Assembly (NCBI GenBank): GCA_014360755.1
Contig: JACIWX010000001.1
Span: 558,001 to 622,000, forward strand
DNA length: 64,000 nt
Direction: 5' to 3'
Source of the DNA: Chloroflexota bacterium
Lineage (GTDB): Bacteria; Chloroflexota; Anaerolineae; UBA2200
The notes under the pieces were generated by a model. That model searched no databases, had not been told where the DNA came from, and saw only the letters and a list, made by a program, of their open reading frames with translations. Below, piece after piece: positions 25,522-45,733 of this stretch. Numbering within the stretch: position 1 is the first letter of the stretch; every line of letters begins with the position of its first letter. A program made the translations under genes and the position numbers.

Positions 25522-25589
25522 CACTAACGGCACGGCGGTTGAGCCGCACGCAGCGAGGCGAAGCCGCTAGATGGATGTGCGTGTTAGGC
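25522..25589 (-). other. attC site A (after mrr)
   Basis: On the minus strand the 68-bp site runs from GCCTAAC (a perfect RYYYAAC core) to GTTAGTG (degenerate GTTRRRY). Inner arms GCGGCTTCGCC and GTGCGGCTCAACCGCC give the folded structure. It begins seven bases after the mrr stop, the usual cassette spacing. Confidence 0.72.
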
Positions 25590-25595
25590 CTTTCT

Positions 25596-26484
25596 CTATC
25601 CTTCAGGTGCCAAGAAGTAAATTGGTTTCAGAGGAAAAAGGTCTCGTGTCTCTTCGTCCAATTTTTCAATATGCTCAATCCAGAGTTCAAAGAGACGTTC
25701 GAGATTGATGAGTGTGACCTGGCGGCTTTGTTGAGTTCGCGCTTCTTCTTCGGCGTCTCTAGTAAATCCACCAGTGCTGACAAAGATACCTACATCGTTA
25801 TCGCCTAGTAAAGCCATAAATGAGCGCAACACTGCAGCATTGACTGCGCTTTGGTCACGTTTGACTTGAACCTTGATGCGAGGAGGCCTTGTCCCTAGCG
25901 GATCATTCCATGCCAAAATGTCAATTCCGCCATCACGCCCAGGAGGCGCAACCCAAGAAACATGATAGATACCCCATTACTTTTAGCAGGCCGGCGACCA
26001 TTTTCTGAAACTCATATGGAGGCATCTCTCGCAGATACTCTTCAATTTCTCTCCAAGCCTGTTCTTCTGCTTCTTCAAAAGTGATAGCCGCCCTTTTCTC
26101 GCCAACTTCCTCCCCAACCTTTGAACTGCGTTTCGGCTGACTTCGGCGCCATTCCCAATACAACTTTTGTGCTGTTCGGTAAAATTGCTCTGGCGATTTA
26201 TATTCGTGATATGCACGCTTTCCTTCTTCGGTTACTATCCACCGGCCTTTATCTTTTATCATCCATCCTGCTTTTACCAGGTCAATTGTGGCAAAGCGGA
26301 CAATCTTTTCAAAACGTGATCCGCCGCCTGACGCGTATTCGCCCTTTTCATAGTCGGTAAGCTGCACACTGCTACGAAGCGAATTTAGAGCATCCTGAGC
26401 GCGCATTCCTTCCGGATGGTCTAGTAAGATATCAAACAGTTTCCGCAACAATTCGCCTGTTCTTTGAATTGTGATTTTGGCCAT
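25596..26484 (-). pseudogene. mrr: Mrr-type restriction endonuclease, frameshifted
   Basis: The N-terminal part (26484 down to about 25970) is the Mrr winged-helix domain, MAKITIQRTGELLRKLFDIL through EEYLREMPPYEFQKMVAGLL. The C-terminal part, in another frame, is the Mrr catalytic domain with GRDGGID and KVQVKR, the conserved Asp and QxK of the PD-(D/E)XK fold, then VGIFVSTGGFTRDAEEEAR. The frames join at 25964-25971, where GATA is present twice in tandem (TATCTATC on the coding strand); removing one 4-base unit restores the frame. Mrr cuts modified (methylated) DNA. It is the last recognisable cassette gene, 28 bases from attC B and followed by attC A. A sequencing error or reversible switching cannot be excluded. 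Confidence 0.82.
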
Positions 26485-26512
26485 AAGACTCCCCTTTGTG
26501 GTGTTCAGAAAG

Positions 26513-26639
26513 GCCTACCGGTGGCGGCTCACTTGCGCGGCGGCTGGGGCGATGAGCCTCCGCGACCCACCTCGGCAGCAGGCCCAGCCAACTTCGCAAC
26601 CGAGCATGATAGCCGGTCAGGTGCAGCCGCGGGCTAGGC
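26513..26639 (-). other. attC site B, degenerate (127 bp)
   Basis: On the minus strand it runs from GCCTAGC (one base from a GCCTAAC core) to GGTAGGC (one base from GTTAGGC). The arms CCGCGGCTGCACC and GCCGCCGCGCAAGTGAGC flank a long variable loop. It lies between the stop of the zinc protein and the start of mrr, exactly where a cassette junction is expected. Core mutations probably reduce activity. Confidence 0.55.
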
Positions 26640-26655
26640 CTCCAGCTGCCGCTCA

Positions 26656-26988
26656 CTATGCCCCAAGACGGCTTTCGAAGATGTCAATCTGTCCTTGAAG
26701 GACCCGCCTCAGACTTGTCCCACATTCCTCGCTGCACAACACGAACAGAAGATCGTACCCCGCTCGTCTTGCCTCCGAGTCTTCCGTCGGCACAATCGCC
26801 AAGGCCTTGCGTGTCGGCGTGAGTGCAAGCTCAATCACATTTCTCTCGTGCTCCACTTCGACCCCAGGCCTGAATCTTGCCCCGATGCTGAACACCTCGG
26901 AACCCTCAGGGATCTGCTTCCCGCACCACGCACACACGCCCAGGGCATCTTCCAAAGTGACTTGCTTTCTGCGCCTTCTTCTGGTCAT
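26656..26988 (-). CDS. Small Cys-rich (treble-clef-like) cassette protein, unknown function
   Basis: A 110-residue protein not assignable to a named family. A basic start (MTRRRRRKQVTLEDALG) leads to CAWCGKQIPEGSEVFSIGAR and, near the end, LCSEECGTSL; the CxxC and CxxxC pairs suggest one zinc knuckle as in HNH-like or treble-clef proteins, though no catalytic His motif is evident. ATG at 26988 has GGGAGA five bases upstream and lies 64 bases after attC C. Single-gene cassettes of unknown function are typical of chromosomal integrons. Confidence 0.65.
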   Translation of the reverse strand: MTRRRRRKQVTLEDALGVCAWCGKQIPEGSEVFSIGARFRPGVEVEHERNVIELALTPTRKALAIVPTEDSEARRAGYDLLFVLCSEECGTSLRRVLQGQIDIFESRLGA

Positions 26989-27051
26989 CCCTATCTCCCA
27001 TTCAGATTCGAGCAGGATGTGTGCCCTGCCTACCTTGAGATCAGCCCGGAA

Positions 27052-27114
27052 GCCTAACGTGGGCATCACCCGCACCGCGCAGCGGAGCGGCACAGGTGCA
27101 AGCGCGGGCTGGGC
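27052..27114 (-). other. attC site C (63 bp)
   Basis: On the minus strand GCCCAGC (imperfect AAC-side core) leads to CGCGCTTGCACC, a GC loop and GTGCGGGTGATGCCCAC, ending in a perfect GTTAGGC. This is the textbook short attC form. It begins five bases after the original hepT stop (27119-27121). Confidence 0.8.
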
Positions 27115-44485: not shown

Positions 44486-44532
44486 TGTTTGCCTCCTCAT
44501 CAGACTTTCGAGCACCGCCCTAGTTCGGGGGC

Positions 44533-44539
44533 GTCTAAC
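44533..44539 (-). other. attI recombination core of the integron
   Basis: The minus strand reads GTTAGAC, a perfect GTTRRRY site, 48 bases before the hsdM start. Upstream on the same strand are related direct repeats (GGTTAAGCCGC, GTTAAACCGTCGC, TTTAAGCCGTTTC), which could be accessory IntI-binding sites as in other attI sites. The full attI probably spans about 44533-44640. Confidence 0.7.
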
Positions 44540-44578
44540 TATATTTTCAACCGAAACGGCTTAAATAACATTTAGGGT

Positions 44579-44619
44579 GCGACGGTTTAACTACCCCAAA
44601 ATCGTAGTTAAACCGTCGC
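44579..44619. promoter_or_regulatory. Perfect 16-bp inverted repeat in the intI-attI region
   Basis: GCGACGGTTTAACTAC (44579-44594) and its exact complement (44604-44619) enclose nine bases. It lies in the leader of the cassette transcript, between Pc and the attI core, and about 120-160 bases upstream of intI. It could be an operator, an attenuator or a folded part of attI; there is no T-run after it. Confidence 0.7.
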
Positions 44620-44656
44620 GGCTTAACCGCATCCAAAGCCGCAAATTGACGTCTAT

Positions 44657-44685
44657 ATGATAAAATAAGCCATGGTTTTTGTCAA
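44657..44685 (-). promoter_or_regulatory. Cassette promoter Pc
   Basis: On the minus strand TTGACA (44680-44685) is followed by exactly 17 bases and TATCAT (44657-44662), one mismatch from consensus. Transcription would start near 44650 and run through attI into hsdM. Position and direction match Pc of known integrons; activity is inferred. Confidence 0.75.
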
Positions 44686-44737
44686 ACGTGAGATTATCGT
44701 CAATGCACTAATGCCAAGAGTTGAAAAGGAGTCAAGT

Positions 44738-45733
44738 ATGGCCTCCTCGTCCTTCCTCAACCAGGTTCGCCAGGTGATGCGCCTCAAGCACATGAGCCTC
44801 AGCACAGAAGACTCATATCTCTACTACATCAAGCAGTTCATCCTCTTTCACAACAAACGTCATCCCAAAGACATGGGCGTTGATGAAATCCGCGCTTATC
44901 TGTCCCACTTGGCGGTGGAAAGACGGGTTTCAGCGTCAACCCAGAAGGTGGCTCTCTCCGCTTTGCTCTTTCTGTATCGAGACGTACTCAAAATACAACT
45001 GCCCAACATCGAGGGTATTGAGCGAGCGCGGGCAGCGAAACATATCCCTGTAGTGTTCACACGCGAGGAGGTCAGCGCCATCCTCTCTCATCTGACCGGC
45101 ACGCCCCATCTGGTGGTCAGCTTACTGTACGGCTCAGGGCTGCGTTTGATGGAGGCGTTGCGTCTGCGAGTCAAGGATATTGATTTCACCTATCGGCAGA
45201 TTACCGTGCGGGACGGCAAAGGAGAAAAGGATCGCGTGACTGTCCTGCCACAGTCTTTGGTCGAACCGCTCAAGTGTCAGTTAGCGTATGCCAAGAAGAT
45301 CCATGAGCAAGATCTGAAAGAAGGCTATGGAGCAGTTTACTTGCCCTACGCGTTGGAACGAAAATATCCGAACGCCAATAAAGAATGGGCCTGGCAGTAC
45401 GTCTTTCCAGCGGATCATCGTTCGGCCGAGCCACGCACAGGCCTCATCCGCCGTCACCACTTTCACGAGGACAACGTTCAACGCGCAGTCAAACAGGCCA
45501 TTCGCAAGGCGGGCATTGCCAAGCATGGCAGCTGTCATACCTTCCGCCATAGCTTTGCTACCCACCTACTGGAAGCCGGCTATGACATCCGTACTGTCCA
45601 GGAACTTCTCGGCCATAAGGATGTACGCACAACCATGATCTACACCCATGTCCTTCAACACGGCGGATTTGCTGTGCGCAGCCCATTGGATGAGACCCCG
45701 CTCAATCCTCGCGGTAATGGCAGCCGCGGCTGA
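44738..45733 (+). CDS. intI: Integron integrase IntI
   Basis: A 331-residue tyrosine recombinase. Catalytic residues are Arg136 ([14 protein letters not shown]), His267 and Arg270 ([13 protein letters not shown]), His293 (LLGHKDV) and Tyr302 (MIYTHV). The IntI-only insert is at residues 199-223: [15 protein letters not shown] then [10 protein letters not shown], which recognises the folded attC. XerC/D lack it, so this is a true IntI. It starts [22 protein letters not shown] as IntI proteins do; ATG at 44738 has AAGGAG and is preferred over 44672. No frameshift is present, so it may be active. Its 3' end overlaps nadB (convergent) by 32 bases. Confidence 0.96.

What the first reader, a model, noticed from the sequence alone, without database searches (positions are those of the whole stretch)
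25522..45733. A complete chromosomal integron in a probable Chloroflexota genome
Seen: intI with the IntI-specific insert, a divergent cassette promoter, an attI core and seven attC-like sites between seven gene groups that all read away from intI. Known: this is the defining plan of integrons, mostly described in Gammaproteobacteria. Inference: the array is a sedentary integron with a defence- and envelope-centred content. Gene starts and stops sit tightly against the predicted sites, which chance would not produce.
Basis: partly seen in the sequence, partly recalled or inferred. Interest (0 to 1): 0.92.

Follow-up and report, generated by a model that had tools for sequence, protein, structure and literature searches.

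The report
Chromosomal integron in a Chloroflexota genome
The stretch is a real gene-capturing element (an integron) with seven captured gene cassettes in an environmental Chloroflexota bacterium; the kind is known, but its integrase gene looks spliced from two lineages, which suggests how such platforms get swapped at a fixed place in a chromosome.

Summary
Window 44738-45733 encodes an integron integrase (TIGR02249, 474 bits, cut-off 265) with the IntI-specific insert. A promoter-like site and attI lie beside it, followed by seven cassettes read away from intI. A covariance model trained on attC sites from loci not named Chloroflexota has five of the seven sites as its five best hits in the window; sites 6 and 7 are degenerate and fail it.

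The kind is known: Chloroflexi intI has been in print since 2008. New here, as far as my searches go: the integrase model passes its cut-off in 96 of 396 sampled genomes of this class. The locus, next to nadB, is empty in three family members and filled in a genus mate with another integrase lineage and no shared cassette. The window intI looks mosaic: a head affiliated with cyanobacterial integrases, a Chloroflexota-type 3' tail, break near 45563. The genus mate's nadB-linked intI breaks likewise against two of three comparison copies. I read this as in-place platform replacement by recombination inside intI; supported, not proven.

Two cassettes are about 7 kb and multigenic (one a type I restriction operon); three distal genes look broken. 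Recombination was not testable. New member of a known kind; interest about 0.5.

The parts
44738..45733 (+). intI, integron integrase (ORF listed from 44672; likely start ATG 44738); codons up to about 275 of cyanobacteria-affiliated lineage, the last ~130 bases before 45691 of Chloroflexota type; the reading frame then runs into the 3' end of nadB
   Evidence: TIGR02249 474 bits; IntI insert and catalytic residues; trees; breakpoint about 45563
44657..44685 (-). candidate cassette promoter Pc, TTGACA-17-TATCAT
   Evidence: consensus match only
44533..44640 (-). attI: insertion core GTTAGAC at 44539-44533 plus a conserved stretch that holds an inverted repeat (44572-44626)
   Evidence: 44718-44537 is 88% identical to a second platform in the same genome, 97% over 44537-44600
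37489..44538 (-). cassette 1 (~7.05 kb, GC 0.66): HsdM with a GIY-YIG domain (42602-44515), HsdS (41296-42612), REP-associated tyrosine-transposase-like protein (40688-41302), HsdR (37560-40700), attC1
37489..37552 (-). attC1
   Evidence: 37.6 bits, E 4.7e-6; bottom-strand fold z -4.75
35858..37488 (-). cassette 2 (1.6 kb, GC 0.63): right-handed beta-helix protein (36057-37472) and attC2
35858..35989 (-). attC2
   Evidence: 19.5 bits, E 0.032; top of detector; bottom-strand fold z -4.82; 84% identical to an attC of another array in the genome
28777..35857 (-). cassette 3 (~7.1 kb, GC 0.64): ORFs 35474-35809, 32631-35477, 32116-32640, 31472-32101, 30445-31380, 29073-30530 (several lipoprotein- or membrane-like by eye; no family above cut-off), attC3
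28777..28910 (-). attC3
   Evidence: 30.1 bits, E 1.8e-4; fold not better than shuffles
27826..28776 (-). cassette 4: two TPR genes (28486-28704, which ends early; 27948-28295) and attC4
27826..27895 (-). attC4
   Evidence: 46.4 bits, E 6.8e-8
27052..27825 (-). cassette 5: MNT nucleotidyltransferase (27484-27831 as listed) and HepT (27188-27487, which ends early at an in-frame stop), attC5
27052..27114 (-). attC5
   Evidence: 18.8 bits, E 0.044
26513..27051 (-). cassette 6: 145-aa protein (26656-27093 as listed) with no family above cut-off and degenerate attC6 (26639-26513, R' is GGTAGGC)
   Evidence: no model hit
25522..26512 (-). cassette 7: Mrr-type restriction endonuclease in two frames (25933-26484, 25596-25916) and attC7 (25589-25522, R' GTTAGTG)
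   Evidence: weak model hit; 25488-25564 is 82% identical to a stretch beside a cassette gene on contig C12

Best explanation
A complete chromosomal integron. Shown by sequence: an open IntI with its diagnostic insert, an attI, a promoter-like Pc, and an array of seven cassettes in one orientation, five of them closed by attC sites that an independent model recognises. Inferred from established integron biology: IntI recombines folded single-stranded attC sites with attI, new cassettes enter next to intI, and Pc drives the first ones. The three attI-proximal cassettes (GC 0.63-0.66 in a 0.54 genome flank) would then be recent arrivals from GC-rich donors and the distal ones older; three distal genes look broken. 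The platform lies between a macro-domain gene and nadB, a place that is empty in three related genomes. Its intI looks mosaic, which I read as replacement of a resident platform by homologous recombination inside the conserved 3' end of intI: the tail next to nadB stayed, and head, attI and cassettes came as a block. The confidence below is for the integron; the replacement reading has its own odds in the section on the most novel reading.
For: IntI model and insert; attC model and detector with controls; R''-to-own-start matching; Pc. Locus: nadB side co-linear with genus mate G001; in G003, G004 and G005 the two genes adjoin, with 37 bases between them in G005 and stop codons that share 4 bases in G003 and G004, against 22,026 bases in the window. 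Mosaic: identity to the sister copy L130 falls from 0.927 (738 bases) to 0.799 (144), Fisher 1.3e-5; maximum chi-square break at 45563, 0 of 2000 permutations; the G001 nadB-locus intI falls the same way against L131 and L077. The tail tree groups the window with both G001 copies and G034-C31 (94), the head tree does not. GC.
Against: Two of seven attC sites fail the model. In single-strand folding attC1 and attC2 alone clearly beat shuffles on the bottom strand; attC3, attC4 and (by 0.1 kcal) attC6 fold better as top strand. Cassettes 1 and 3 are far longer than usual (recalled norm about 0.5-1 kb). Recombination was not tested. Against the mosaic: the tail is about 130 bases; the split at codon 270 was chosen after seeing the profiles; amino-acid diagnostic sites alone gave no significant split (547 of 5000 permutations); G001's nadB-locus intI does not fall against a third, more distant mate, L118 (0.814 to 0.803, p 0.73); the window tail is closest to G001's mvk-locus intI (84.5%), not its nadB-locus intI (79.1%); and the sister copy at another locus (G034-C31) also has a tail of the local type.
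Confidence: 0.92

Rival explanations
1. A decayed integron: the structure is real but no longer works, and the array is a fossil.
For: attC6 and attC7 degenerate; Mrr split over two frames, HepT and TPR1 ending early; two other platforms in the same genome have lost most of intI.
Against: IntI reading frame and catalytic residues intact; promoter near consensus; proximal cassettes have long open genes and a GC unlike the genome, so entry was comparatively recent.
Confidence: 0.15
2. Cassettes 1 and 3 are not single cassettes but ordinary insertions, or runs of cassettes whose internal attC sites were lost.
For: About 7 kb with four and six ORFs.
Against: With filters off the model finds no full-length site inside either at E <= 10, only one partial hit at 32340-32366 (E 4.9); the ends match as one unit, R'' to own start 6 of 7 and 7 of 7; GC is similar along each.
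Confidence: 0.3
3. The two genus members acquired unrelated integrons independently at the same place, with no replacement of one by the other; the 3' tail similarity is chance or rate variation.
For: The spacer between the intI end and nadB differs in length and sequence in the two genomes (10 against 29 bases, counted by eye); the tail is short; no fall of G001's copy against L118.
Against: The window copy, and G001's nadB-locus copy against two of three mates, fall significantly at the most conserved part of the protein; the 14 comparison pairs without either nadB-locus copy do not fall significantly; tail tree support 94.
Confidence: 0.38
4. Chance: a Xer-type recombinase next to unrelated genes and spurious palindromes.
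For: None found.
Confidence: 0.01

Closest known systems
Sedentary chromosomal integrons (Vibrio, Xanthomonas)
   Same: IntI, attI, Pc-like promoter, cassettes in one orientation, chromosomal locus shared within a genus, defence genes among the cassettes (PMC12444791: passages on defence systems in Xanthomonas cassettes).
   Different: Only seven cassettes, attC sites unlike each other, two cassettes about 7 kb long, and an integrase lineage that differs between genus mates at the same locus.
Chloroflexi/Chloroflexota integrons already on record (PMC2426708, 2008; PMC8618304, 2021; PMC12772301, 2025)
   Same: The first two list the phylum among those with intI or integrons (passages); the third reports an integron integrase gene beside sul4, with a Chloroflexota MAG among the hosts (passages).
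   Different: The passages I read give no cassette-array anatomy, prevalence within the class, or locus history.
Cyanobacterial integron integrases (Leptolyngbyaceae and relatives)
   Same: The window IntI is 72% and 70% identical to L018 and L019 and falls in their clade.
   Different: Chloroflexota-type 3' tail and Chloroflexota host.
Class 1 integrons
   Same: IntI insert and site architecture.
   Different: 51% integrase identity; chromosomal; no drug-resistance family among those found in its cassettes.

Membership tests
Integron | IntI-type tyrosine recombinase with the additional IntI domain | tested here: met
Integron | attI next to intI with a GTTRRRY core | tested here: met
   GTTAGAC at 44539-44533; stretch conserved at a second platform
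Integron | attC sites (R''-L''...L'-R') between cassettes, all one way | tested here: met
   Five of seven by the independent model; sites 6 and 7 not met on their own
Integron | Bottom-strand single-strand folding of attC | tested here: inconclusive
   Clear for attC1 and attC2 only, 2 of 7
Integron | Cassette promoter Pc towards the array | tested here: inconclusive
   11 of 12 consensus match, expression unknown
Integron | IntI-driven attI x attC recombination | not testable with these tools
   Needs a wet assay
Sedentary chromosomal integron | Chromosomal and at a locus shared within the lineage | tested here: met
   Shared with the one genus mate held; empty in G003, G004, G005 of the family
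Sedentary chromosomal integron | attC sites of the array alike in sequence | tested here: not met
   Lengths 63-134 and unlike sequences; so 'sedentary' is used for place, not for array type
Sedentary chromosomal integron | IntI inherited vertically with the host | tested here: not met
   Head lineage differs from the genus mate's at the same locus

The most novel reading that the evidence does not exclude
In this order of Chloroflexota, integron platforms are exchanged in place: an incoming platform recombines with the resident one inside the conserved 3' end of intI, so that the last ~130 bases of intI next to the host gene stay and the rest (5' intI, attI, Pc, cassettes) is swapped as a block. 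The nadB locus has then been refilled by different integrase lineages in two sister species, and the genome keeps three such platforms (nadB; tRNA-Asp; mevalonate-kinase locus) with one intact integrase that may serve all of them.
Probability: 0.38. Interest if true: 0.68.

Novelty: new member of a known kind. Interest (0 to 1): 0.5.

Why it matters
How chromosomal integron platforms arrive at and leave a chromosomal site is poorly known (my understanding; not from a search). Here an empty site, two differently filled sites and head/tail mosaics lie in one family of bacteria, so the question can be tested with a few more genomes. The count of 96 of 396 genomes with an integrase above cut-off also says that this Chloroflexota class is rich in integrons, whereas a 2022 survey of complete genomes found 93% of complete integrons in Gammaproteobacteria (PMC9024848, passages), a picture that depends on which genomes were sequenced. 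I made no like-for-like count for Gammaproteobacteria.

Tried and rejected
An early reading, that the intI 3' end was swapped at the nadB locus, was first suggested by identity profiles, then noted as refuted when a 91-94% identical copy at another locus in G034 turned out to have a similar C-terminus (note), and revived when codon-level comparison showed that the identity between these two copies falls sharply in the tail. The amino-acid version of the test was not significant.

That the window is a lone odd integron: rejected, since integrases occur across the class. That the array lies on a plasmid or mobile element: the plasmid search of the array gave 12 records, the 10 listed being restriction-gene stretches or unannotated; the integrase has 9 phage records, all below 60% identity.

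Rfam at gathering level gave nothing at the array, only tRNA-Sec. A general repeat search was too noisy to find attC. G224 and G362 have an integrase above cut-off but no attC at E <= 0.1; G003 has neither. G002, the fourth other family member, has a partial intI and no NadB at E <= 1e-100, so its site could not be read.

Rows dropped: of 62 detector sites on the array side, 53 came from loci not named Chloroflexota and were at most 95 bases long; 41 of these were put into the model, 12 left out by hand, mostly from loci already represented; one training locus (L083) is an unnamed bacterium. The IntI trees used 60 and 87 rows chosen by me. The mosaic test used 17 comparison pairs and the mosaic trees 18 rows, all chosen by me.

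Full report
What was checked first. The ORF at 44672-45733 (+) is an integron integrase: TIGR02249 474.3 bits against a cut-off of 265; XerC/XerD models below theirs, and the narrower equivalog NF011946 also below its own (361 of 435). Pfam finds the tyrosine recombinase domains. Aligned with IntI1 of a class 1 integron and with three Xer-like proteins of the same genome, it has the IntI insert that those three lack, and all six catalytic positions. The likely start is ATG 44738, after AAAAGGAG, at the place where the sister copy L130 is read to start.

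attC sites. I first read the seven sites by eye, then wrote a detector from the R''/R' and L''/L' layout as I recall it; it admits AGC in R'', as in sites 5 and 6, so it is not wholly blind to the window. On the minus strand of the window its five best hits are sites 2, 1, 4, 5 and 3; on the plus strand the same palindromic sites score again, and a parS-like palindrome at 58308 scores 25.7, above sites 5 and 3. On 91 intI-bearing loci (some overlapping, one being the window itself) it gives 101 hits in 341 kb on the array side (62 on the expected strand) and 11 in 633 kb on the other side. A covariance model was then made from 41 sites, none from a locus named Chloroflexota. With filters off it places the same five sites first in the window (46.4, 37.6, 30.1, 19.5, 18.8 bits; E 6.8e-8 to 0.044); the sixth hit has E = 1 and is elsewhere. 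Site 6 is not found; site 7 has E 5.9. They stand at gene ends; site 7 resembles at 82% a stretch behind a cassette gene on contig C12. Over the seven cassettes R'' matches the own start at 43 of 49 bases, which 36 of 40,320 re-assignments reach; against the following R' it is 40 of 49, and for cassette 4 the following R' fits better. As single strands, bottom-strand attC1 and attC2 fold far better than shuffles (z -4.75, -4.82); the other five do not (z -0.07 to -0.85); the top strand is better for attC3, attC4 and, by 0.1 kcal, attC6.

attI and promoter. TTGACA-17-TATCAT (11 of 12) points to the array at 44685-44657. The stretch up to the core GTTAGAC (44539-44533) holds an inverted repeat (44572-44626).

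Content. Cassette 1: HsdM with a GIY-YIG domain, HsdS, a REP-associated tyrosine-transposase-like protein, HsdR. Cassette 2: beta-helix protein. Cassette 3: six ORFs without a family above cut-off, several lipoprotein-like by eye. Cassette 4: two TPR genes. Cassette 5: MNT/HepT pair, HepT ending early. Cassette 6: a 145-aa protein. Cassette 7: Mrr in two frames. Sizes are 7052, 1631, 7081, 951, 774, 546 and 995 bases, GC 0.658, 0.628, 0.644, 0.507, 0.519, 0.604, 0.480, against 0.54 and 0.55 in the flanks. In the loci held, no whole cassette of the window recurs at DNA level; what matches are attC and attI stretches, a piece of the MNT gene (69%, L137 of G002) and a piece of the beta-helix gene (72%, L139 of the own genome). 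At protein level MNT/HepT (50-57%), HsdM/HsdS (26-40%) and the beta-helix protein (40%) have relatives there.

Host and spread. NadB beside the array is 71% identical to that of Chloroflexi bacterium K_DeepCast_250m (L077's genome) and 58-64% to four other genomes filed under Chloroflexota (one titled Ktedonobacter); the other seven of the 12 genomes asked gave 33-44%, among them three Chloroflexota. The class includes genomes with the same integrase as Candidatus Roseilinea, so it is probably Anaerolineae (recalled). TIGR02249 passes its cut-off in 96 of 396 genomes of the class (97 at E <= 1e-75; 68 of 234 good-quality genomes at that E-value) and in 0 of 14 control genomes; phylum-wide in 43 of 400. 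A search with the window protein at E <= 1e-60 gave 99 of 396. attC hits at E <= 0.1 were found in 5 of 8 genomes that I picked.

Integrase tree. With 60 rows the window falls with five cyanobacteria and an Acidobacteriota MAG (97 SH-aLRT), apart from the ten other Chloroflexota rows. With 87 rows that clade (97) also holds two class members, G034-C31 (96% identity over 295 columns) and G123, while the 38 other Chloroflexota rows fall in another clade (99) together with three cyanobacteria, Gemmatimonas, Poribacteria and a Myxococcota MAG. These are quick trees without bootstrap.

The locus. nadB and 18 kb beyond it are co-linear with contig C4 of the genus mate G001 at 73-80% DNA identity (98% over the tRNA), and G001 also has intI against nadB. 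On the other side, G001 keeps the macro-domain and peptidase genes on another contig (C27, L136), with T7SS-like genes next to them (my reading of the ORFs), so the span between is not seen in one piece. In G003, G004 and G005, of the same family and without an integrase match at E <= 1e-30, the macro-domain gene and nadB face each other directly: 37 bases between the stops in G005, stop codons sharing 4 bases in G003 and G004. In the window 22,026 bases lie between. So the site is empty there and filled in this genus. G001 has one attC hit beside that intI (L011 7992-8065) and no cassette in common with the window.

Other platforms in the genome. C12 has intI with a large internal deletion and attC-like sites (weak: 15.3 and 14.9 bits) beside a mevalonate-kinase-like gene, where G001 has its second integron. 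C1:83 kb, next to tRNA-Asp, has an attI stretch 88% identical to the window's over 182 bases, a broken 3' scrap of intI, and four attC hits; its first cassette is 91% identical to the one beside G001's nadB-locus intI. The integrase search of the whole genome found only the window's copy intact.

Mosaic. Against the sister copy in G034 (which has a 22-codon deletion and lies at another locus) the window intI is 92.7% identical over codons 1-269 and 79.9% over 270-318 (Fisher 1.3e-5; maximum chi-square at 45563, 0 of 2000 permutations). G001's nadB-locus copy falls likewise against L131 (0.895 to 0.776, p 2e-4) and L077 (0.883 to 0.776, p 9e-4), but not against the more distant L118 (0.814 to 0.803, p 0.73). 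Of the 14 pairs without a nadB-locus copy none falls significantly and two rise (17 pairs in all). The split point was chosen after seeing the profiles. In the head tree the window and G034-C31 pair (100) on the cyanobacterial side of a split supported at 100, and G001-nadB pairs with L077 and L131 (99). The tail tree (129 bases) groups the window, both G001 copies and G034-C31 (94); within that group the order is unresolved, and the window tail is nearest to G001's mvk-locus copy. I read this as exchange within the intI 3' end; which copy donated which tail cannot be told.

Novelty. Chloroflexi or Chloroflexota is named as an integron-bearing phylum in PMC2426708 and PMC8618304 (passages) and mentioned in PMC9668308 (passage); PMC12772301 reports an integron integrase gene beside sul4, with a Chloroflexota MAG among the hosts (passages). 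Searches for integrons with Chloroflexi or Chloroflexota, Anaerolineae and attC, and mosaic or replaced integron integrases showed, in the rows listed, no title or abstract start on cassette arrays of this class or on platform swap; the library lacks most subscription papers and I did not open most of the rows. Defence genes in integrons are known (PMC12444791, passages). So: a new member of a known kind, with an evolutionary observation worth following.

Noticed in passing
window 42602-44515 (-): HsdM carries a GIY-YIG domain (residues 506-580) between the N6-methylase domain and its C-terminal tail; of 71 plasmid records that match this region none covers 80% of it in one place.
   Followed up: partly
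window 40688-41302 (-): A REP-associated tyrosine-transposase-like gene (56.7 bits, below the model's cut-off of 80) sits between hsdS and hsdR inside the restriction operon.
   Followed up: no
window 58308-58386 (+): Two TGTTTCACGTGAAACA-like palindromes, the parS (ParB site) consensus as I recall it.
   Followed up: no
window 61267-61362 (+): Selenocysteine tRNA gene; the stretch is 98% identical in the genus mate.
   Followed up: no
L138 3016-11311 (own contig C1, 83-91 kb): Second platform next to tRNA-Asp: attI of the window's type, remnant of intI, four attC hits.
   Followed up: partly
L014 8280-10550 (own contig C12): Third platform with internally deleted intI at the mevalonate-kinase-like locus where G001 has its second integrase.
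   Followed up: partly
L139 (own contig C7) 6023-6092, 6585-6654 (-): Two more attC hits, model E 0.002 and 0.007, with no integrase match on that contig.
   Followed up: no
L017 11039-14814 (G001 contig C4, about 31-35 kb): Four attC hits (E 3e-4 to 0.55) in the genus mate away from its two integrases.
   Followed up: no
window 28260-28342 and 28669-28751: The two TPR genes of cassette 4 share their start regions at 81%, as if one arose by duplication.
   Followed up: no
L136 1-9342 and L011 1-7400: T7SS-like genes (FtsK/EssC-like ATPase, FHA and WXG-like proteins, by reading the ORFs) flank the integron locus in the genus mate.
   Followed up: no
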